DNA from: Synechococcus sp. ROS8604
GTDB taxonomy: Bacteria; Cyanobacteriota; Cyanobacteriia; PCC-6307; Cyanobiaceae
Length of the DNA: 64,000 nt
Direction: 5' to 3'
Assembly: GCF_014279655.1 (NCBI RefSeq)
Contig: NZ_CP047946.1
Location: 1,240,001 to 1,304,000 of the forward strand
Position numbers and translations under genes: made by a program. Positions 8,265 through 17,339 of this stretch are shown piece after piece. Numbering within the stretch: position 1 is the stretch's first letter; each line of letters begins with the position of its first letter. Below the pieces are notes generated by a model, which saw nothing but the letters and a program-made list of their open reading frames with translations, was not told the DNA's origin and searched no databases.

Positions 8265-8471
8265 TCAATCCAGATCAGTGGCGATATAGCAGCGTCTGCG
8301 GAGCTGGTCTACAAAAGCCCTTGCATCTGTGCCCCTGTACTTTTCCTTCAGCTGATCAACGATTCCCCCTTGTTCAAGGTTCTTACCGTAAGCATCAACG
8401 ACCAGATCGAGTGCAAAGTCGATGAGTTCAGCTTCTTCTGCACTCAGTCGTACATCGACAAATTTGTCCAT
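8265..8471 (-). CDS. Small hypothetical protein
   Basis: A 68-residue ORF with strong coding character: VRLSAEEAELIDFALDLVVD forms a helix, then a Gly break, a second helix with LKEKYRG, and a basic RRRCY end. No transmembrane segment or known motif is seen. The regular helix pattern and ATG start support a real gene. Function unknown. Confidence 0.58.
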   Translation of the reverse strand: MDKFVDVRLSAEEAELIDFALDLVVDAYGKNLEQGGIVDQLKEKYRGTDARAFVDQLRRRCYIATDLD

Positions 8472-9083
8472 TCGAGCACGGTCTTTCTAGGATTTTCATC
8501 AGAATTCTGGAGCAATTTCTCGTATTTGTCTTTCGCGTGAAGTGATTCCTTACAGGCTCTTGGCTTTATTCCTGAGGGATTTGAAGATAAGTCTAGTTTC
8601 TTCCGAGTGTTCGTTCGTCTGATTAAACCAGATTTTCCAAGTTATTAATCATGTGGTCAATCTAAAGCGATTTGATTTGCTTGTAATGATCATTCTCTGC
8701 TCGCCTCGATCAATTGATATTGATGCTGTCTTGTTCGTGGAAGGATTGATTATTGATGGCTTCTCCGATTGCGTGAGTGAAGACAACTGCGGCCTGAATC
8801 TTAAATCTTTCCAATGTTCGCTGATTTGTGTCATTCACGACTTGTGTTCATCTGCCGAGACAGCTATCAGGGATTTAGTCATTACCAAATCTTGCTATGG
8901 CCATTCTATTCGCCTCTCCTAAAACACAGTCGATCTACCGTCGTTATTGGGCTTCGACCGCTAAGTAGACCATTCAATATTCAGGCCATCTGTTGAGATG
9001 GCCTTTGCACGGTCGTTTGTTTTCTCTTGGGATGTTGAGCTAAGGCTTTTGAGCTGGGCAAGGGTTTTCGCGAGAATGGTGCC
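8472..9083. other. Intergenic stretch with no supported gene
   Basis: About 610 bases, AT-rich at the left. Opposed short ORFs (plus 8653-8922, minus 8649-8834) overlap without start signals or recognisable domains. Around 8985-9010 a weak inverted repeat (GGCCATCT and AGATGGCC) could form a hairpin. Nothing else stands out. Confidence 0.5.
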
Positions 9084-9530
9084 ATGCACAACATTCCTTC
9101 TACCGTCTTTCTTCTTATGTTGGCTCATGGTTTTTCGGAACATGTGAGTGTTCAAGACATGCCTTTGGTGCGATTTCAGTCGTGTTACGACGGGGATACT
9201 TGTACGACCACCCATGCTGAAAAAGTCAGGTTGGCCTGTATCGATGCTCCTGAAAGGAAGAAGCGGCCTCGTTTCAGGGCAACCAGAATGCAGCCCACTG
9301 CCTATGACAACAGCTTGGCCGACCAATCGGCATTCCATTTGAGAACATTGGTTTTAGGTCGATTGGTGGGTATCCGCCGAATCACCACTGATCGCTATGG
9401 GCGCACGGTTGCGGAGCTTTTCATTGATAACACCAGCGTTGGCCAGCAGCAGGTAGAGAATGGTCATGCTGTGATTTCTCAGCGACATGCGTGGCAATGC
9501 GCGTGGGCAACGCACCGCACTGACCAGTAG
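9084..9530 (+). CDS. Secreted thermonuclease-like protein, C terminus damaged
   Basis: A staphylococcal-nuclease family protein of 148 residues with a short hydrophobic leader. It keeps the catalytic set: DGDT (36-39), RLACIDAPE (49-57) and DRYGRTVAEL (103-112). It should therefore be capable of Ca-dependent nucleic acid cleavage if folded. It stops shortly after GHAVI, before the usual last helix and the GLW...PW(D/E) ending. Downstream bases in a shifted frame still resemble that ending (WIPP... near 9570) but contain stops, which suggests a frameshift. It is a paralogue of the nuclease-like gene at 2535-3071, which has lost active-site residues but kept its C terminus. Confidence 0.72.
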   Translation: MHNIPSTVFLLMLAHGFSEHVSVQDMPLVRFQSCYDGDTCTTTHAEKVRLACIDAPERKKRPRFRATRMQPTAYDNSLADQSAFHLRTLVLGRLVGIRRITTDRYGRTVAELFIDNTSVGQQQVENGHAVISQRHAWQCAWATHRTDQ

Positions 9531-9892
9531 AAAAGTTCCTTCCTTGATCGTCAGCAACCCTATTGATGGATTCCTCCATGACAGTTGAGGTTCTCCTGTG
9601 ACAGTCATCTAAGTGTTGACGATCTGTTGCAGGGCGTTGTTTGGGACTCAAAATAGGTAAGTGAGGAGGGCTTCTTCACGGAGTGGAAACTAGGCAACAC
9701 TCCCAGCGAGAAGCCGAGAAACCCTGCCTTCGGCGGGGTTTTCTTTTATCTGTTCACTCTCGATCGGTTGCATCTTTAGGACCCACGGCAGAGGCCATGC
9801 GAGCAGGTGTTTCGAGTGCCGCGAGGTTTTTCTGTTCAGCGGATTCTCGGCCTGACGTGAGGTGAGAATGGTGGAAATCGAATCGTTCGTCC
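9531..9892. other. Intergenic stretch with a terminator
   Basis: The first 80 bases look like the decayed 3' end of the nuclease gene. A plus-strand terminator follows at 9720-9748. The remainder shows no supported gene. Opposed ORFs at 9683-9865 and 9754-9993 have no recognisable features. Confidence 0.5.
9720..9748 (+). terminator. Intrinsic terminator
   Basis: Stem AACCCTGCC, loop TTC, stem GGCGGGGTT, then a T-rich tail. It lies downstream of the nuclease gene. The surrounding bases (about 9712-9748) resemble 12151-12187, a degenerate second copy. Confidence 0.75.
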
Positions 9893-10159
9893 ATGTCCCA
9901 AGCTCGCGAGATGATCAATGCCCACCTGTTTCCCGTATTAGCTGTTGTTGCCACAGTGAGTTCTGCATCAGTTGCGATTTCACTGCGACCCATTGCTCAG
10001 CATTCGGCGCGTTGGAACACCTGCTACAGCGACAGCATTGCCTGGTATCAAGCCAATAAACCCGATTGGACAGTTCAGGACAAAGAAGTGTTTGCTTCTA
10101 ATTTCTGCAACGGTGGTACTCCAGTGATGCCAGGGCCAGGTTTCAAGCCTGCAAGCTGA
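9893..10159 (+). CDS. Small exported or membrane-anchored hypothetical protein
   Basis: An 88-residue ORF with one hydrophobic segment (residues about 12-30, LFPVLAVVATVSSASVAISL) acting as signal or anchor. A mature part follows with two cysteines (WNTCY near 42 and NFCNGG near 72) that could form a disulfide. Small secreted proteins of this type are common in picocyanobacteria. No family name is recognised. Confidence 0.55.
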   Translation: MSQAREMINAHLFPVLAVVATVSSASVAISLRPIAQHSARWNTCYSDSIAWYQANKPDWTVQDKEVFASNFCNGGTPVMPGPGFKPAS

Positions 10160-10201
10160 TTCTGATCGCTGCCTGTGAATTTCACTCCGTCTTTACATGG
10201 T

Positions 10202-10558
10202 TTATGACGACCTCGTCGGCAATTCCCCTTGCGGTGTTTCACTGCTTAAAAGCACAGCTGTGCCACTGAGTGACACCATCATCATTCCGCCTTCACCAAA
10301 GACTTCGTAATCGATATCCACGCCAATCACAGCATTGGCTTTCATAGCGGTTGCTCTTGCCACCATTTCTTCAGTAGCGACTTGTCGGGCTTTCTCCAGT
10401 GCTTGCTCGTACGCACGTGAGCGCCCCCCAATAATGTCCGTCATGCTTGCAAGCATGTCCCGGAAAATATTGGCCCCGATGATTGCTTCGCCCGTCACTA
10501 GACCGCGGTAGTGAATGATGTTCCTGCCTTCCACGGTTGGCGTTGTTGTAATCAGCAT
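10202..10558 (-). CDS. YbjQ/UPF0145 family protein
   Basis: A 118-residue cytosolic protein of the YbjQ (UPF0145, DUF74) family, whose role is unknown. The family pattern is clear: N-terminal [11 protein letters not shown], then [15 protein letters not shown], the [13 protein letters not shown] helix and the [12 protein letters not shown] strand. Start at ATG 10558 and length are typical. It is one of the few intact, recognisable genes in the accessory region. Confidence 0.9.
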
Positions 10559-10690
10559 GGTCAGTTTTCAACCCTTAAATTGTCCCAACTTAAGATGCCA
10601 TTGTCGATTGAATTTGCTGAGTTGATCTACGACATCGGTCTCTTCAATAATGTTGACCTTTTTGTTCTAGGGTTACGGCGTAGGGTCTAG

Positions 10691-11041
10691 CTATCCATCG
10701 ATCTGGCGATTGCAAGCAGGGATTTTGCTTCAACATTTGGCTATGGCAACTGCATATACGACCCAACAATATGGGTCAAAAGTGATTCTGACATCTATTA
10801 GCGTTGGCTTCATCGCATGGCCAATGCCTTGATGAAGGCTGAGCGGTAACAATGCGGTTCTGCTCAAAGGCGAGAGTTCTTCCGGCTACCCACCGTTGAC
10901 TATCGGAACACTGAGCCAGTGTGTGACTTTCAGATCGTTCATTGTCAGACCAAAGCTGCAAAGGATGACAAGAATCCGGAGGACTATCTCACTCCCTGTC
11001 TAGCTTTGGTGATCTGCCACAACCTTCAATGTTTTGTGTGA
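10691..11041 (+). pseudogene. Possible gene remnant with two in-frame stops
   Basis: The frame runs from just after a TAG at 10688 to TGA 11039. It is interrupted by TAG at 10799 and TAA at 10847. The last part is open for 63 codons with several Cys and charged residues (VDYRNTEPVCDFQIVHC). No family is recognised. The protein-like composition is suggestive only; this may be chance. Confidence 0.25.
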
Positions 11042-11123
11042 TGAAAACGTTTTGCTATTCGTGTCCGATGTTATGAATCATGCTCCAGCCTCTTGAGGTT
11101 ACGAAGACCTATCTCAGCAATAG

Positions 11124-11531
11124 AATGATGAATCATTTAAAAGTGATGACTGCCACGTTTCAGCTTTCTGCGGCTTTGGTCACTATAACTTTATAGTCCA
11201 CTCTAAAGCCGAGGTTAACTACGGTAACTCTGAAACCCTTGCGGTGATGTCATTCCAGTAATGGGATAATGTTAAGGCGGGGTGTGTTATTAACGTCACA
11301 GAAGTTGATTCTAGATTTGGAGCAACCGGGCGCTGGGAGAGAAAAGCTCAGCTTTGGGATAAGGATTGCGTAAACAGAAAAATCAAGGAGCAACGGTAAG
11401 CCAATGCGGTCGTTTTTGACCCAGATAAAATGTCTGATTGTAATAAAGAAATCTGTGACCTTTATGATCTATCGGTTGTAACGGTTTATGGTTTTGTTTT
11501 GGAAAAAAGGTTTGGAACTGATTTTAAGTAA
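11124..11531 (+). pseudogene. Gene remnant with two in-frame stops
   Basis: A single frame from 11124 to TAA 11529 has only two interruptions, TAA at 11259 and TAA at 11397, over 136 codons. Each piece is protein-like: an aromatic N-terminal stretch with FGHYNFIVHSKAEVNYGN, a middle with VTEVDSRFGATGRWERK, and a Cys-containing end. Four or more cysteines suggest an exported ancestor. The family is not recognised, and the original start is not found. Confidence 0.38.
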
Positions 11532-11680
11532 TGTCAATAGAAGATTCTGTGGCTTAGAAATAAGTGGAAGGATATTATTAAGCAGGGAGTGGCAAATAGC
11601 AGCTTCAAGGGCTGACTGAAGCGATGATTTAGCTGTCAGCCCACGTTGTTCAAAAGGTTTCTTTGAACAGCTTTTTCTGA

Positions 11681-12016
11681 TCAGAACCCGATTTGCACAT
11701 TGAAGCCAGAAGGACGGTGATACCTGACTCCATCCCGATATCCATATCCATAGGCATAGGCTGGGCGAAGAGGGCGGTAACCGCTGTATCGACCATTGCT
11801 ATAGGAATTACGGCGATATCGACTCCAATCTCGCCTGTCATGACGCACGACACGACGTAGTTGCCTGTTCTCATGGCGCAGCTCACTGTTGCTCTTGTTT
11901 GCTTCAGCTGCTGGAGCTGTCGCCAACGATGCGACTCCGATCATTCCAATGCAGACAACAGCATTGATGAACCTGTTTTGGATGAGGCTTGAGAAAACTC
12001 TCGATTTGATAGCCAT
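11681..12016 (-). CDS. Exported Arg/Tyr-rich small protein
   Basis: A 111-residue protein with a signal peptide (hydrophobic core VVCIGMIGVASLATAPA followed by AEA) and a mature part very rich in Arg, Tyr, Asn and Gly (for example RRNSYSNGRYSGYRPL), ending in an aromatic NVQIGF. It is probably periplasmic or surface-associated and highly basic. The ATG at 12016 begins directly before the basic n-region. A longer frame to 12058 adds an unlikely leader. Function unknown. Confidence 0.62.
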   Translation of the reverse strand: MAIKSRVFSSLIQNRFINAVVCIGMIGVASLATAPAAEANKSNSELRHENRQLRRVVRHDRRDWSRYRRNSYSNGRYSGYRPLRPAYAYGYGYRDGVRYHRPSGFNVQIGF

Positions 12017-12150
12017 CGAATCCTGTGTGCTCACCTGACAATGGCGCAATCTCAGCAATCTGAGACTGGTTTAGGGGTATCCGTAACCAATTCATGCAAG
12101 TAGCTGGGATGAAGATATGCGCCAATGAATCCATCACAATGCTTAATAAG

Positions 12151-12187
12151 ATGCCGAGAACTTCTGTCTTTGGTGGGTTTTTCTTGT
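12151..12187 (+). repeat. Degenerate copy of the 9712-9748 terminator segment
   Basis: Aligns by eye with 9712-9748: both begin with a GCCGAGAA core, then a pyrimidine-rich arm, then GG(T/C)GGGTTTT and TTCTT. The hairpin here is weaker because of substitutions. It suggests a duplicated or dispersed short element in the accessory region. Confidence 0.4.
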
Positions 12188-12317
12188 TCCAAGCACAGAC
12201 ACAAAGAGGGGGTACTCAGCCGCACTCCATGGCGTTTTCCGCGCCGCTCGTCTCGACATAGCCTTAGGTGGGAATGCTTATGTTCAATTTGAATCCTTAG
12301 TGTTGCAGGTCCGGAAG

Positions 12318-12518
12318 CTAACGCTCACAGTTGTAGTCACTGTTGCAGGGATACAGGGCATATCCCTCGCCAACTAGTTCAGCGATAGTGCTGTTGTTAA
12401 TTATCCACTTATCGAGTTTGAGAACATATTTCTCACTATTTTTCTTGAAAATGACCAGCGAACTAGATTTCGATGAAGGCTGGCCAACCGCCAGCGTTCC
12501 CTGGCTCATTGTCTGCAT
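12318..12518 (-). CDS. Small hypothetical protein
   Basis: A 66-residue ORF starting at ATG 12518 with a GAGG-like sequence about ten bases upstream. The body (VIFKKNSEKYVLKLDKWIIN, then a hydrophobic helix and YPCNSDYNCER) looks like real protein with two C-terminal cysteines. No family is recognised. It lies downstream of the SIR2-like remnant on the same strand. A plus-strand ORF over the same bases looks less likely. Confidence 0.4.
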   Translation of the reverse strand: MQTMSQGTLAVGQPSSKSSSLVIFKKNSEKYVLKLDKWIINNSTIAELVGEGYALYPCNSDYNCER

Positions 12519-12554
12519 AGCACTTCCAGCCTCTATCTCTTAGTTTTTATTGTC

Positions 12555-12591
12555 AGTTTCCTCAGATGTCTTTGAGGTATCTGAGGAAACT
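12555..12591. other. Perfect 13-bp hairpin
   Basis: AGTTTCCTCAGAT (12555-12567) pairs perfectly with 12579-12591 around an 11-base loop. There is no T-run on either side, so this may be a processing or degenerate termination hairpin at the end of the minus-strand SIR2-like remnant. Confidence 0.55.
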
Positions 12592-12903
12592 ACATTGATC
12601 TAGAGATCATCTGAATCTGCTCCACCTGGAACCTCACCTCCTTCCATTCTTGCTTCGGATAGTGGATCTCTCTTCGTCTTTATAGAGATCGACACTTTTA
12701 TCTTCTTTGATGAGATTATCCTTAACAGTTCTGTTCTGTGACGCATAACGCAAAGGCTTCGTCAACTCACTCAGAATCTTGTGTTTTAAGAATATTTATC
12801 ATTGCTTCTCTTGCTTCTGTCGCGACTCTGTATGGCGTTTTATGCTTCAATGATCACCATCTTCGGGAGACTAAGATATCGTGTAAACATTGGAAAAGTA
12901 ATT

Positions 12904-13614
12904 TCAATTCGTGGCTTCAGCCAAGTCTACTAGGAATTGTTTGATTTGGGGATCTGAGAGACTGTAACTAAGCAACAAACAAAGATTTTCAATGAAATCT
13001 ATGAGTAATTTAGCAATTGAATTTCTGTGCTTTATAGAAAAATCCTCGTAGTCCGATGGGAGGATGGTTATCGAATCAGGGTTGTCGATTGATCCATGTG
13101 CATGCAGAACAGAAGTCGCTCCATCCTTCTCAAGGATTTCATGCCCTCTTCACTTCCTTAGGCCCAAGAGGTCTGAGAAAAAGTGATCGTAGTTTGTTGT
13201 TACTACCTCTTGAGCATCTATGCTTTTTAAGGCTTCCAGCTCTGAAGCATGTTCAGCTAATGGAGTATTGTAACTTGATATTATATTGCCAACAAGCCTT
13301 TTGAAAAATACCTTGTGAGAAATGCTAGGGCTGTAAAGTGATTTATTGATGATATTTTTTCCTTCCCTGGTCCATGCCTATGTGTGAACAAGATCTGCAA
13401 TGATTTCAGTAACTTCGATTAAGTCGTTATCTAGATCTTTTTTGTCAGTTTTTTGACGATAAAAGTTAATTTCTGTTGGTTTTTGATAAACTCAAGGACT
13501 CCCTCCAGTAGTGCTCGCCAATTGGGGGCATTTAAGTATCTTCGTGATACACCGGCGCCAACGAATAATACGGGCTTGGTAGAGCCGCAATTGAGTCTAT
13601 TCTATTTTATCCAT
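12904..13614 (-). pseudogene. SIR2-like (SIR2_2-type) gene, broken by frameshifts and stops
   Basis: Read on the minus strand across frames, this region rebuilds a SIR2-like NAD-binding domain. ATG 13614 has a strong ribosome site AAAGGAAGG six bases upstream. After MDKIE the frame shifts to KPVLFVGAGVSRRYLNAPNW, the Gly-rich NAD-binding start of the family. A second shift occurs at the A6 run near 13438. The next frame holds AWTREGKNII, VVTTNYDHFFSDLL, HAHGSIDNPDSI, SDYEDF and LLLSYSLSDPQIKQF, which are the family's TTNYD, HG and GYS-D positions. In-frame stops lie at 13380 (TAG, probably from a Trp codon), 13152 (TGA) and 12906 (TGA). Such domains are NAD-consuming effectors in several anti-phage systems. 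Remnants may extend to about 12720. Confidence 0.85.
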
Positions 13615-13757
13615 TTTGATCCTTCCTTTCTGTAATTTATGTCATGCAGTGTAGTGGTTGATGAAACGTAGATTCTCCTGAAGACTTTCTTCTTGAATTA
13701 TAAATTGATGTTAAAGCATCCGTGTATATCCAGTGTTTTTGAATCAAACTCACTTTC

Positions 13758-13973
13758 TCACATGATTTTCTTCACTCCGAGTGGCATGCAAGTTTCAATA
13801 AGTTTCTCACGTGCTTTTTGGGCTGCCGCATTGTTGATCAATCCTTGCATTACTAAAAACTTAGTTCGATCGCAAGCATTAAATAGGTCATCTCTCAAAC
13901 GGGTGAGTTTGAGTCCGATGCCAACAGTCAAAATCAGGGTTGACAGCGGGACGGTTGCTGACCTCTTAAGCAT
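13758..13973 (-). CDS. Small exported hypothetical protein
   Basis: A 71-residue ORF with a hydrophobic N-terminal segment (residues about 9-21, PLSTLILTVGIGL) after a basic start, then a charged helical part with two cysteines (NACDRT and ETCMPLG). This fits a small secreted or membrane-anchored protein. It lies between the SIR2-like remnant and the integrase remnant. The opposite-strand ORF is less protein-like. No family is recognised. Confidence 0.45.
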   Translation of the reverse strand: MLKRSATVPLSTLILTVGIGLKLTRLRDDLFNACDRTKFLVMQGLINNAAAQKAREKLIETCMPLGVKKIM

Positions 13974-14054
13974 CTAGCTGACTGCTTACGGGCTAATACA
14001 GAAGAACTGAGCCATGGCGAGAAATCGCCCCGCCCGATAATCGATAATCGAGCC

Positions 14055-14336
14055 ATGGCAACGGAACACCCCCCCCTGCATGGGCCAAGAGTGATTCGCA
14101 TACCTACAGCGTTGGCTCAGCCGCAAAGCCTCACTGATCAAGCTTCACCGCAAGAGAGGAGGACTTACAGGGTGAAGGAGGCCGTATATGCCATCCATGA
14201 AGCGACGCACCGATCAGACGGCGTTCATCCATTCGACGCTCAGGAAATGGATTCAGAGCTGCTTGGGGCCTACAGTAGGGCTCAAAGCAAAGAGCGGCGA
14301 TCAACTCAGCATGCTCGACTATTCTGTTTCCGCTAA
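14055..14336 (+). CDS. Doubtful hypothetical ORF next to the integrase remnant
   Basis: A 93-codon plus-strand ORF with an ATG start, a His/Pro-rich N terminus and a charged middle (RRTYRVKEAVYAIHEATHRS). It overlaps the end of the minus-strand integrase remnant by 18 bases. No signal, domain or ribosome site is evident. It could be part of the decayed integrase region read on the wrong strand. Confidence 0.22.
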   Translation: MATEHPPLHGPRVIRIPTALAQPQSLTDQASPQERRTYRVKEAVYAIHEATHRSDGVHPFDAQEMDSELLGAYSRAQSKERRSTQHARLFCFR

Positions 14337-14522
14337 TCCAAGAACTTCCTCCTGTGCATTAAGTCGCAGGTGAAACTTTCGTATCTTGCTCTCACCAAAT
14401 GCGTCAGTTATTCGAATACGCCAATAGAGAGAACCTCGCTCCTGAAACAAGCTTCCGCCAAGCCCTTTGGCTTTGATGCTGGCGTTTGTGGCGGCCGGAT
14501 CCACGCTATTTCTTCTACACAT
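14319..14522 (-). pseudogene. Integrase N-terminal remnant (arm-type DNA-binding part)
   Basis: A 67-residue ORF reads like the first domain of a cyanobacterial tyrosine recombinase: a Lys/Ala-rich start, then KGLGGSLFQERGSLYWRIRI, a beta-hairpin of the kind seen in integrase arm-binding domains, then a FHLRLNAQEEVLGLAE segment. The core-binding and catalytic (R-H-R-Y) domains are absent. The reading frame stops at 14319 and no continuation was found in other frames. It lies about 140 bases from the 3' end of tRNA-Ser, where integrases of tRNA-targeted islands normally sit. The assignment rests on pattern and position. Confidence 0.5.
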
Positions 14523-14617
14523 CTTCGAGATATTCTGCCTTGTTTAGGCATATCTCAAGCCGAACCAAGCTCGGAGAGGCTTGACGCCAGGAGGCTCTAT
14601 GCCCGGCCCTAGGCAAT

Positions 14618-14645
14618 AAAAAACCCAGTCAATGACCGGGTTTTG
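14618..14645 (-). terminator. Terminator downstream of tRNA-Ser
   Basis: Read on the minus strand, AAACCCGGTC, a short ATT loop and GACTGGGTTT form a hairpin with one mismatch, followed by a T-run (complement of AATAAAAAA at 14614-14622). It lies just 3' of the tRNA. Confidence 0.65.
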
Positions 14646-14658
14646 CTTGGCTATTGAG

Positions 14659-14745
14659 CGGAGAGGGTCGGATTCGAACCGACGGTGGGCTTGCACCCAC
14701 GCTGGTTTTCAAGACCAGAGCCATAAACCACTCGACCACCTCTCC
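14659..14745 (-). tRNA. tRNA-Ser (UGA anticodon)
   Basis: An 87-base class II tRNA. The acceptor arm GGAGAGG pairs with CCTCTCC and the discriminator base is G. The anticodon loop CTTGAAA carries TGA. A long variable arm (CGTGGGTGCAAGCCCACC) is typical of tRNA-Ser, and the T loop is GGTTCGAATCC. CCA is not encoded. Its 3' end faces the accessory region and the integrase remnant. Confidence 0.96.
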
Positions 14746-14996: not shown

Positions 14997-17339
14997 TTAG
15001 TTATTGGGTTTGGCTAGAGGTAAGAGGCATTTATCTGAATCGCATCCAGCTGGACCCGCTTCGGTGAGCTCTCCGCTGTCATACCTTTGCAATGCGTCGA
15101 AAAAGTCACTGTTGACCCGACGTTGAAGCACTTCTTTCTGCATGCGCTCGTAGGTTTGTGCATCGATTGGTTCAAATGGCAAACGAGGGAAGGTTGCGTT
15201 TGCGTCGAATCGAGCGAGTAGTGCTGCAGAAATGTAACCGCCACCCTCTTGGATCGTCTGATGTAGAGCATCGGTTAAGGGCTCAATCTCATGCTCACGA
15301 AATTCGATCGTTGCCGATGTGTTGTGGGCGGTGAAGTGCGATTGGACTTGCATGTAAAAATCAAACTGTGCCAATGCTGAAAACGCATTGATGTCCACAG
15401 TGTCTGCTCCAGGCAGATTGGCCCAACTCACCTCGGTTGGAATTTCTACTAACCATTCCGTGCAGCGTGTATCGAATGGGTCGTTCAAAAGTCGACCTTG
15501 ATCATCCTTATCAGACTGAGAAGGAACCACTGTGTAGCCGTAGTCCATACAGGCCATTGCTACAGGATCGTTTTTCCGGAATGTAATCCTGCGGATAAAG
15601 CGCTGAGCTTTGGGAGGATGCCAACCAGGTGCAGCCCCTGTAAGCAGACTTTTTGTTCCAGCGGGCTGAACTGTGGTGCAGCGGTTTGGCCTCCTCAGTC
15701 CATGACGATCGCAGTAATCCCATACGGTTTCATTCACAATTAATTTCCAGCGCTTTAAGTAATCAGCCTCTTGCCTCTTGTATTCCAATCCTTCTTCTGT
15801 TTCTGGTCGGCCAGCTTCCCACCATTGCAACCAAGGTGTGCCGTATGCATGCACGAAAAAGTCAAACAAGCCAGTAAAGCTCACACCTACGATTGGGTCC
15901 CAGGCACGACTTTGGCGGTAACGCTCTACTTCAAATTTGTGATTGAGTAGGCAGGCAACAGAAAGGGCAGCGGCTCGGAATGCATCGCGTTGTGACGCTT
16001 CATCCTTGGGGTCGATTTGGTTTAAATGAACTTCTGCAAGGTTGCAATGAAAATCTGCACCGAGGATTTCACCGCAAGGGTTTAATCCGTAGCGGCTCAG
16101 TCGATGCTCAAGTTCATTTTCTGACATTGGACCATGATTTTGTTGAAGCCATCGACCAGCTTCTTCACGACCTTGGTCGCAGTAAATCTCGATAAATTCG
16201 CCTTTAAGTTCTTGTGTGGTGAGCACATCAGCGTTGGAGCGAGCCAGAGCTTCAGGTGCAAATTGAATGGCACCTTCTCCGCTGTGGAATTGACGCGTCA
16301 CTGCTTCAAGCAGAACATCTCTGCTTGGGCGGGTGTGATAAACGCGGGTATGGTTCGCCATTCGTAGCGCATCGCGCTCAGGATCAATTCTCCAATTCCC
16401 TACTGAATCCTGTTCCCACAAATTCTCCTTGGCTCCTGCTGCTGAGGTGTCATCGGAAGCGAATTGGCGCATCCCTGCGCTGCGTCGGATGTTGCCTGCG
16501 ACAATCGTGACGGCTGCTTCGTCAATCAGCAGACAGCATTCAATCGATGTGAGCTTTCGACCGATTGCTTTGCCAAGCAATTTTGCGACGCGACCGTAGA
16601 GATCTTTCAATTTCACTGGGTTCGCCATGCCTCCGAAACCCTTGAGCGTTTCACCGACGGGGCGAATATCAGTGAGATCGATCTCGACTTCGACTTTTCT
16701 GCCTTCGAATCGTGGATCGCTGCTCAGTTCTAAGAGCAATTGATAGCTGTCGACCCAGCCACGTCTGGTGTCCCCCACCTTGATCGAAACGCTGTGATCG
16801 CTGATGCTGTATGTGGTTGCTTCTTGGCGTTGTTCTTCAGCTGTGATTCCAATATCGGAAACGCTTAGAACTTTAATTGGGTTGGTAACAACTGGAAGTC
16901 GATCAATGAAGTGAGGCTCAATGATGGCGCCTGTTCCACACCCCATCATCGCCAAATCCATCATCAGCCCGAAAGCCTCCCAATCCACAAGATTTGTGGA
17001 GGTGCAGTTGTAGGCCCCGGAGAAATTTTCAGGCTTTTCGATCCATGGAGTACCACCAATCCATTGCCACCGTCCTGAGGGAAGGGCTTTTTTCTCAGCC
17101 TGCATCCTGGCCAATAGAGCCATTTCCTCAGCATTGAGGGAACCAAGCTTTAGGAGCCCCGATCGATTTCTTTCCCCTACTTCGCTCCAGCTTTCTCTTC
17201 CTTTGGTTAGGCGACGGCTGTAAGTGCGATAAAAAACCGGGTTGGCGGCAGGCGCGCTTGCTGGGAATTCACCATTAATGGGCGCGAGCCCGCTGGATTG
17301 TGTATCTGACTTTTCTGTGCGGCTTGGTGTGAGAGTCAC
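14997..17339 (-). CDS. nrdJ: Adenosylcobalamin-dependent (class II) ribonucleotide reductase
   Basis: This is a cytosolic enzyme reducing ribonucleotides to deoxyribonucleotides with coenzyme B12, so DNA synthesis here depends on cobalamin. The 780-residue length and layout match the monomeric Lactobacillus-type class II enzyme. Landmarks are ENFSGAYNCTSTN near residue 115, the LNPCGE finger-loop region near 421, TTVQPAGTKSLL near 560, and the C-terminal redox pair CDSDKC about ten residues from the end. No cobalamin riboswitch was recognised upstream. The spacer to the divergent MscS remnant is about 160 bases. Confidence 0.95.
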   Translation of the reverse strand: MTLTPSRTEKSDTQSSGLAPINGEFPASAPAANPVFYRTYSRRLTKGRESWSEVGERNRSGLLKLGSLNAEEMALLARMQAEKKALPSGRWQWIGGTPWIEKPENFSGAYNCTSTNLVDWEAFGLMMDLAMMGCGTGAIIEPHFIDRLPVVTNPIKVLSVSDIGITAEEQRQEATTYSISDHSVSIKVGDTRRGWVDSYQLLLELSSDPRFEGRKVEVEIDLTDIRPVGETLKGFGGMANPVKLKDLYGRVAKLLGKAIGRKLTSIECCLLIDEAAVTIVAGNIRRSAGMRQFASDDTSAAGAKENLWEQDSVGNWRIDPERDALRMANHTRVYHTRPSRDVLLEAVTRQFHSGEGAIQFAPEALARSNADVLTTQELKGEFIEIYCDQGREEAGRWLQQNHGPMSENELEHRLSRYGLNPCGEILGADFHCNLAEVHLNQIDPKDEASQRDAFRAAALSVACLLNHKFEVERYRQSRAWDPIVGVSFTGLFDFFVHAYGTPWLQWWEAGRPETEEGLEYKRQEADYLKRWKLIVNETVWDYCDRHGLRRPNRCTTVQPAGTKSLLTGAAPGWHPPKAQRFIRRITFRKNDPVAMACMDYGYTVVPSQSDKDDQGRLLNDPFDTRCTEWLVEIPTEVSWANLPGADTVDINAFSALAQFDFYMQVQSHFTAHNTSATIEFREHEIEPLTDALHQTIQEGGGYISAALLARFDANATFPRLPFEPIDAQTYERMQKEVLQRRVNSDFFDALQRYDSGELTEAGPAGCDSDKCLLPLAKPNN

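What the first reader, a model, noticed from the sequence alone, without database searches (positions are those of the whole stretch)
14319..14745. Integrase remnant at the 3' end of tRNA-Ser(UGA)
An isolated 67-codon ORF resembling an integrase arm-binding domain lies about 140 bases from the tRNA 3' end, the classic insertion site of genomic islands. It points to past integration followed by loss of the catalytic part, and explains the odd content of the preceding region.
Basis: partly seen in the sequence, partly recalled or inferred. Interest (0 to 1): 0.58.

Follow-up and report, generated by a model that had tools for sequence, protein, structure and literature searches.

The report
Integrase fragment beside a serine tRNA
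A 67-codon stub beside a serine tRNA gene is the leftover front end of an integrase, the enzyme that inserts mobile DNA into tRNA genes in ocean cyanobacteria; intact copies occur at the same spot in relatives, so this is an ordinary genomic scar.

Summary
tRNA-Ser(UGA) lies at 14658-14745 (-) and the 67-aa ORF at 14319-14522 (-), 135 bp from its 3' end. The ORF alone hits no Pfam or NCBIfam family. It is nonetheless the N-terminal, probably arm-binding, domain of a divergent tyrosine recombinase. It matches the first 66 or so residues of 360-380-aa proteins in the genus (54% identity, E 3.8e-17). A family HMM of 24 proteins built without it finds it at E 1.6e-7. An intact relative models as a tyrosine recombinase. 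Of the 30 best family loci, 20 lie beside tRNA-Ser(UGA), 4 beside tRNA-Arg(CCU), 6 beside no intact tRNA. Partial tRNA copies in four relatives begin in the anticodon arm, which places the crossover there. The stub is shared with one sister genome (92%), so the truncation predates their split. No attR copy remains in the window. The 'odd' region is only partly explained: most of its recognisable genes also occur in relatives without this stub. Ordinary biology; low interest.

The parts
14658..14745 (-). tRNA-Ser(UGA) gene, the attachment site; crossover inferred in the anticodon arm (14701-14716)
   Evidence: ARAGORN, Rfam; partial copies in relatives start at GGTCTTGAAAACCAGC
14319..14522 (-). 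67-aa remnant: N-terminal (arm-binding-like) domain of a divergent tyrosine recombinase; catalytic part lost
   Evidence: fold of an intact relative
14041..14300 (+). frameshifted fragment of an unrelated gene of about 140 codons (open elsewhere in G007, G012, G015, G016) that abuts the truncated integrase end
14620..14644 (.). inverted repeat next to a T-run just past the tRNA 3' end, terminator-like
   Evidence: self-match in blastn
8972..14657 (.). variable segment between conserved backbone and tRNA; probable decayed island (SNase 9084-9530, hyp 9893-10159, YbjQ 10202-10558, hyp 11681-12058, integrase remnant); limits approximate

Best explanation
The ORF is the surviving N-terminal domain of a tyrosine recombinase of a mobile element that integrated into tRNA-Ser(UGA) in an ancestor of this strain and its sister G006. 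Shown: homology, position beside the tRNA, loss of everything after about residue 66-75, sharing with G006. Inferred: intact relatives recombine attP with the anticodon arm of tRNA-Ser(UGA), the element restoring the 3' half of the tRNA; afterwards a rearrangement joined the integrase end to a fragment of another gene and removed the catalytic part and the far att site. The stub most likely has no function now.
For: Homology: 54% to G008, 52% to G017, 39% to G005; HMM E 1.6e-7 built without it; shuffle control. Co-location: 20 of the 30 best family loci have tRNA-Ser(UGA) within about 1.5 kb, 4 tRNA-Arg(CCU), 6 none. Spacing from integrase start to tRNA 3' end, measured against the G005 protein: 135, 136 and 134 bp in G005, G008 and G074, 126-152 bp in all seven intact-start 3'-side loci; 144 bp here by the same measure, 135 bp from the ORF's own ATG. 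att duplications: 3'-half tRNA copies in G008 (about 19 kb away), G013, G028 and G017, all starting in the anticodon arm. Tree: stub and G006 group with the 3'-side integrases of G008 and G017 (100/96), though the stub fills only 16% of the columns. Fold of intact relative L122: all 7 Foldseek hits at E <= 0.001 are tyrosine recombinases, TM-scores 0.29-0.47; VIA lambda Int Z 10.5, 295 residues, model 1-372, rmsd 10.6. Loss: G006 keeps 102 codons, then diverges.
Against: No Pfam or NCBIfam hit and only one weak PHROG hit (unknown function, E 0.15) to the ORF; the 9 relatives or pieces of them that were scanned stay below the PF00589 cut-off. No attR found in the window. The stub's own model finds no fold match at E <= 0.001. 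Profile-profile comparison with two own-genome integrases failed, and a profile search of PDB sequences gave only unrelated chains. The partial tRNA copies of G013 and G028 have no integrase of this family within 6 kb, so they may come from other elements. Three further relatives (L004, L006, L008) have no intact tRNA gene in their loci. The stub differs less between G000 and G006 (10 of 199) than pooled neighbouring non-coding or fragment DNA (82 of 624; Fisher p 0.001), but not than the adjacent 135-bp gap alone (p 0.12), which could hint at constraint.
Confidence: 0.9

Rival explanations
1. The stub is a domesticated small DNA-binding protein (arm-binding domain kept for regulation or as an inhibitor of incoming elements at the same site).
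For: Open in both G000 and G006; lower divergence than pooled flanks; 5 of 9 differences non-synonymous where 76% would be expected, dN 0.034, dS 0.091.
Against: The binomial test is not significant (p 0.23) and the differences show no clear third-position bias (2, 3 and 4 at positions 1, 2, 3); lengths differ (67 and 102 codons). At the other tRNA-Ser loci examined, only intact or broken integrases of the family were found.
Confidence: 0.07
2. Chance ORF with a spurious resemblance.
For: No hit in curated families.
Against: E 3.8e-17 in a relative, shuffle z up to 33, same position beside the same tRNA in other genomes.
Confidence: 0.01
3. The stub and the neighbouring segment 8972-12067 come from two different integrations at the same tRNA: an older island whose genes stayed in the clade, and a later element of which only the stub remains. 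(Compatible with the best explanation of the stub itself.)
For: SNase, hyp9893, YbjQ and hyp11681 are in relatives without the stub; G008 shows two tandem integrase islands at this tRNA; G015 has a weak, different integrase N-terminal trace (tblastn E 0.001, not found by HMM).
Against: The stub may simply have been lost from the other relatives.
Confidence: 0.45

Closest known systems
Tyrosine recombinases with lambda-Int-like three-domain layout (XerA, Tn1549 Int, lambda Int)
   Same: Model of intact relative L122: N-terminal helix, three strands and helix, helical core-binding region, catalytic domain; top fold matches are this family; R226, K249, R329, H352, Y361 (L122 numbering) conserved in 7 of 7 (their catalytic role is assigned from recalled motifs)
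   Different: Sequence below the Pfam cut-off; the H of HxxR is Y or M; the window copy keeps only the N-terminal domain
Novel picocyanobacterial integrase family of PMC10187409 (passages read)
   Same: Divergent tyrosine recombinase of Prochlorococcus and Synechococcus missed by standard annotation, next to tRNAs in variable islands
   Different: That family is reported at tRNA-Phe and tRNA-Cys; this one is at tRNA-Ser(UGA) and tRNA-Arg(CCU). Sequence relation not tested
Tycheposons (Hackl et al.; original not held; mentioned in passages read of PMC10187409 and PMC10872708)
   Same: tRNA-associated elements with tyrosine recombinases in Prochlorococcus; named relatives here include three Prochlorococcus records
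   Different: Cannot be matched to tycheposon integrases without the paper's sequences

Membership tests
Tyrosine recombinase (integrase) | Catalytic residues R, K, H-x-x-R, H/W, Y in intact relatives (motif recalled) | tested here: met
   R226, K249, R329, H352, Y361 invariant in 7 of 7 aligned proteins; the first H of HxxR is Y or M instead, so met except for that residue
Tyrosine recombinase (integrase) | Curated family score (PF00589, 27.1 bits) | tested here: not met
   Best relative 26.1 bits (L124); no PF00589 hit at E <= 1 for L005, L007, L008 or the pieces of L003 and L004; window ORF no hit. PHROG integrase family phrog_1 hits 4 of 7, best 3.6e-13
Tyrosine recombinase (integrase) | Fold | tested here: met
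   For intact relative L122 only: 7 matches at E <= 0.001, all tyrosine recombinases; model pLDDT 70, pTM 0.41. The stub's own model was uninformative
Tyrosine recombinase (integrase) | Catalytic domain present in the window copy | tested here: not met
   Homology covers HMM 17-82 of 389; no further significant piece in the window. A remnant, not an integrase
tRNA-borne integrative island | attL and attR direct repeats of the tRNA end | tested here: not met
   Window: none found. Present in relatives G008, G013, G028, G017
Tycheposon | Integrase family and element structure as published | not testable with these tools
   Original paper not held

The most novel reading that the evidence does not exclude
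A divergent picocyanobacterial integrase family uses the near-symmetric anticodon arm of tRNA-Ser(UGA) to integrate on either side of the tRNA: some members restore its 3' half (8 of 20 loci on the 3' side), others its 5' half (12 of 20 on the 5' side; far end checked in G025 only). The window stub would be a scar of the 3' type.
Probability: 0.35. Interest if true: 0.4.

Novelty: new member of a known kind. Interest (0 to 1): 0.22.

Why it matters
It marks tRNA-Ser(UGA) as a repeated integration site in marine picocyanobacteria: 7 of 27 tRNA-Ser loci examined in the genus hold this integrase or a piece of it. It also shows that several of these integrases escape standard family models, so some tRNA-borne islands are likely under-annotated. 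The stub itself is a common kind of scar.

Tried and rejected
Chance ORF: rejected. attR within the window: none found; the 3 hits of the 15-base core (the tRNA itself, its own mirror match, and one with 3 mismatches) are no more than chance (2.27 expected). Further integrase pieces in the window: a weak tblastn hit at about 8349-8596 (E 0.06; 0.006 in a smaller search) falls on a conserved small reading frame of 73 codons open in relatives too and is not recognised by the family HMM, so it was set aside. Viral contigs: no relative of the ORF. PDB by sequence profile: only unrelated hits. Profile-profile comparison with two own-genome integrases: no relation found, small alignments. Fold search with the stub alone: nothing at E <= 0.001. 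Tree labels: tRNA side and type are clustered but do not form single clades (8 changes for 5 groups, least possible 4). Papers: searches. The search for 'tyrosine recombinase' with 'Synechococcus' and 'tRNA-Ser' found no held paper; this does not show absence from print.

Rows dropped: L101 in the tree was read in a wrong frame (538 aa) and is not trusted; it was left out of the HMM. The HMM also left out both stubs and the broken G008 and G017 copies, leaving 24 rows. Genomes G010, G029 and G030 (contig ends within about 1.2 kb of the tRNA on the island side) and G026 (no tRNA match) were not among the 27 loci, which looked 6 kb to the 3' side and 1.5 kb to the 5' side. The sensitive tblastn covered 15 of the 27 loci. 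The tRNA count uses only the best 30 loci, in which 368 of 400 genomes match, most of those listed through a distant (about 30%) homologue. The G018 row (a C-terminal fragment) is left out of the spacing range.

Full report
What is there. The window is 1240001-1304000 of a 2.88 Mb genome held as one contig. The four nearest named relatives of the integrase are one Synechococcus and three Prochlorococcus records, so the host is taken to be a marine picocyanobacterium (inference). The only tRNA is tRNA-Ser(UGA), 14658-14745 on -. On its 3' side, same strand, 135 bp away, is a 67-aa ORF, 14319-14522. Beyond the tRNA 5' end lies a 780-aa ORF resembling a ribonucleotide reductase (14997-17339; name recalled).

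What the ORF is. Curated libraries do not know it: Pfam 0, NCBIfam 0, PHROGs one family of unknown function at E 0.15. Whole-genome search finds relatives in 4 of the 30 other genomes of the genus: G006 92% over 66 residues, G008 54%, G017 52%, G005 39%. In G005, G017 and G008 the match is the start of integrase-like proteins: intact ones of 367, 379 and 362 aa, one G017 copy with an internal stop, and two broken G008 copies. They share boxes such as GCRP(A/S)E, RHAW and MGH followed by Y. Four of 7 family proteins hit the PHROG integrase family phrog_1, best 3.6e-13; PF00589 hits stay below the cut-off. The AlphaFold model of L122 (pLDDT 70, pTM 0.41) has as its best solved neighbours XerA, Tn1549 Int and lambda Int, and aligns to lambda Int over model residues 1-372 (Z 10.5, rmsd 10.6). 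Its first 73 residues form a helix, three strands and a helix; the window ORF covers most of that part, and its own model gives a helix plus three strands, though alone it finds no significant fold match.

Position. Of the 30 best family loci among 400 genomes of the family, 20 have tRNA-Ser(UGA) within about 1.5 kb, 4 tRNA-Arg(CCU), 6 none. Of the 20, 8 lie on the 3' side and 12 on the 5' side of the tRNA. On the 3' side the integrase start lies 126-152 bp from the tRNA in seven loci, 134-136 bp in G005, G008 and G074; by the same measure it is 144 bp here. With an HMM that excludes the stubs, 7 of 27 tRNA-Ser loci of the genus have a hit: G000, G005, G006, G008, G017 and G018 (C-terminal part only) on the 3' side and G025 on the 5' side.

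Attachment site. Partial tRNA copies in G008, G013, G017 and G028 begin at the anticodon arm (GGTCTTGAAAACCAGC, with two changes in G028) and run to the tRNA end and terminator; in G025 the far copy is the 5' half instead. This places the crossover in the anticodon arm and suggests that 3'-side elements restore the 3' half of the tRNA. G013 and G028 have no integrase of this family nearby, so their copies may be due to other elements. The window has no second copy that the searches could find.

History. G006 carries the same stub (102 codons, 92% identical, 135 bp from its tRNA), so truncation predates their split. Past about residue 66-75 the integrase homology stops, and the DNA matches a fragment, on the other strand, of a gene of about 140 codons that lies elsewhere in G007, G012, G015 and G016. 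G006 also lacks window 10838-14079. Genes of the window's left part (polyphosphate-kinase-like, SNase, glutamine-synthetase-like, DUF938, a short ORF; the first and third names recalled, others) lie on the same side of tRNA-Ser in whole or part in 11 of the 26 other genomes examined; the piece from about 8972 to the tRNA varies. SNase, hyp9893, YbjQ and hyp11681 homologues occur there in G024 and G015, two of them in G001 and G007 and one in G027, without the stub, so the stub alone does not explain this content. SNase homologues also follow the integrase in G008's two islands.

Function. Nothing shows that the stub works. Between G000 and G006 there are 9 differences in 198 bases, 5 non-synonymous, not different from neutral expectation (p 0.23). 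Divergence is lower than in pooled flanks (10 of 199 against 82 of 624, p 0.001) but not than in the adjacent gap (p 0.12). I hold it to be a dead scar.

Verdict. Observation confirmed; interpretation partly supported. It is a decayed member of a known kind.

Noticed in passing
9655-9719 (+): Cyano-1 RNA (RF01701, 53.3 bits, cut-off 41) inside the variable segment.
   Followed up: no
8268-8486 (-): A 73-codon reading frame (ending ...CYIATDLD) under a stretch conserved at about 79-85% DNA identity in relatives; the same frame, mostly 73 codons or longer, is open in all 8 loci compared. A small conserved gene of unknown function; it resembles the integrase N-terminus only weakly and not by HMM.
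   Followed up: partly
8795-8971: Second stretch conserved at about 69-75% DNA identity in 6 relatives, the left edge of the variable segment.
   Followed up: no
L143:10334-10430 (G000:C1 about 965333-965429): An old copy (72%) of the tRNA-Ser(UGA) 3' half and terminator, starting in the anticodon arm, some 289 kb from the tRNA, in a region with integrases and no intact tRNA; looks like a displaced att site.
   Followed up: partly
L145:7442-7472 (G000:C1:2077441): 31-base, 94% copy of the tRNA-Ser(UGA) 3' end without a tRNA gene.
   Followed up: partly
L071 (G015), 3' side of tRNA-Ser: Weak trace of a different integrase N-terminus (tblastn E 0.001 to the G017 B type; not found by HMM), perhaps a second independent stub.
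   Followed up: partly
10838-14079: Absent from sister G006, whose junction falls where two stretches of similar sequence overlap.
   Followed up: partly
L026 and L027 (G008): Two integrase-bearing islands in tandem at tRNA-Ser(UGA), with a partial tRNA copy about 19 kb from the intact one.
   Followed up: partly
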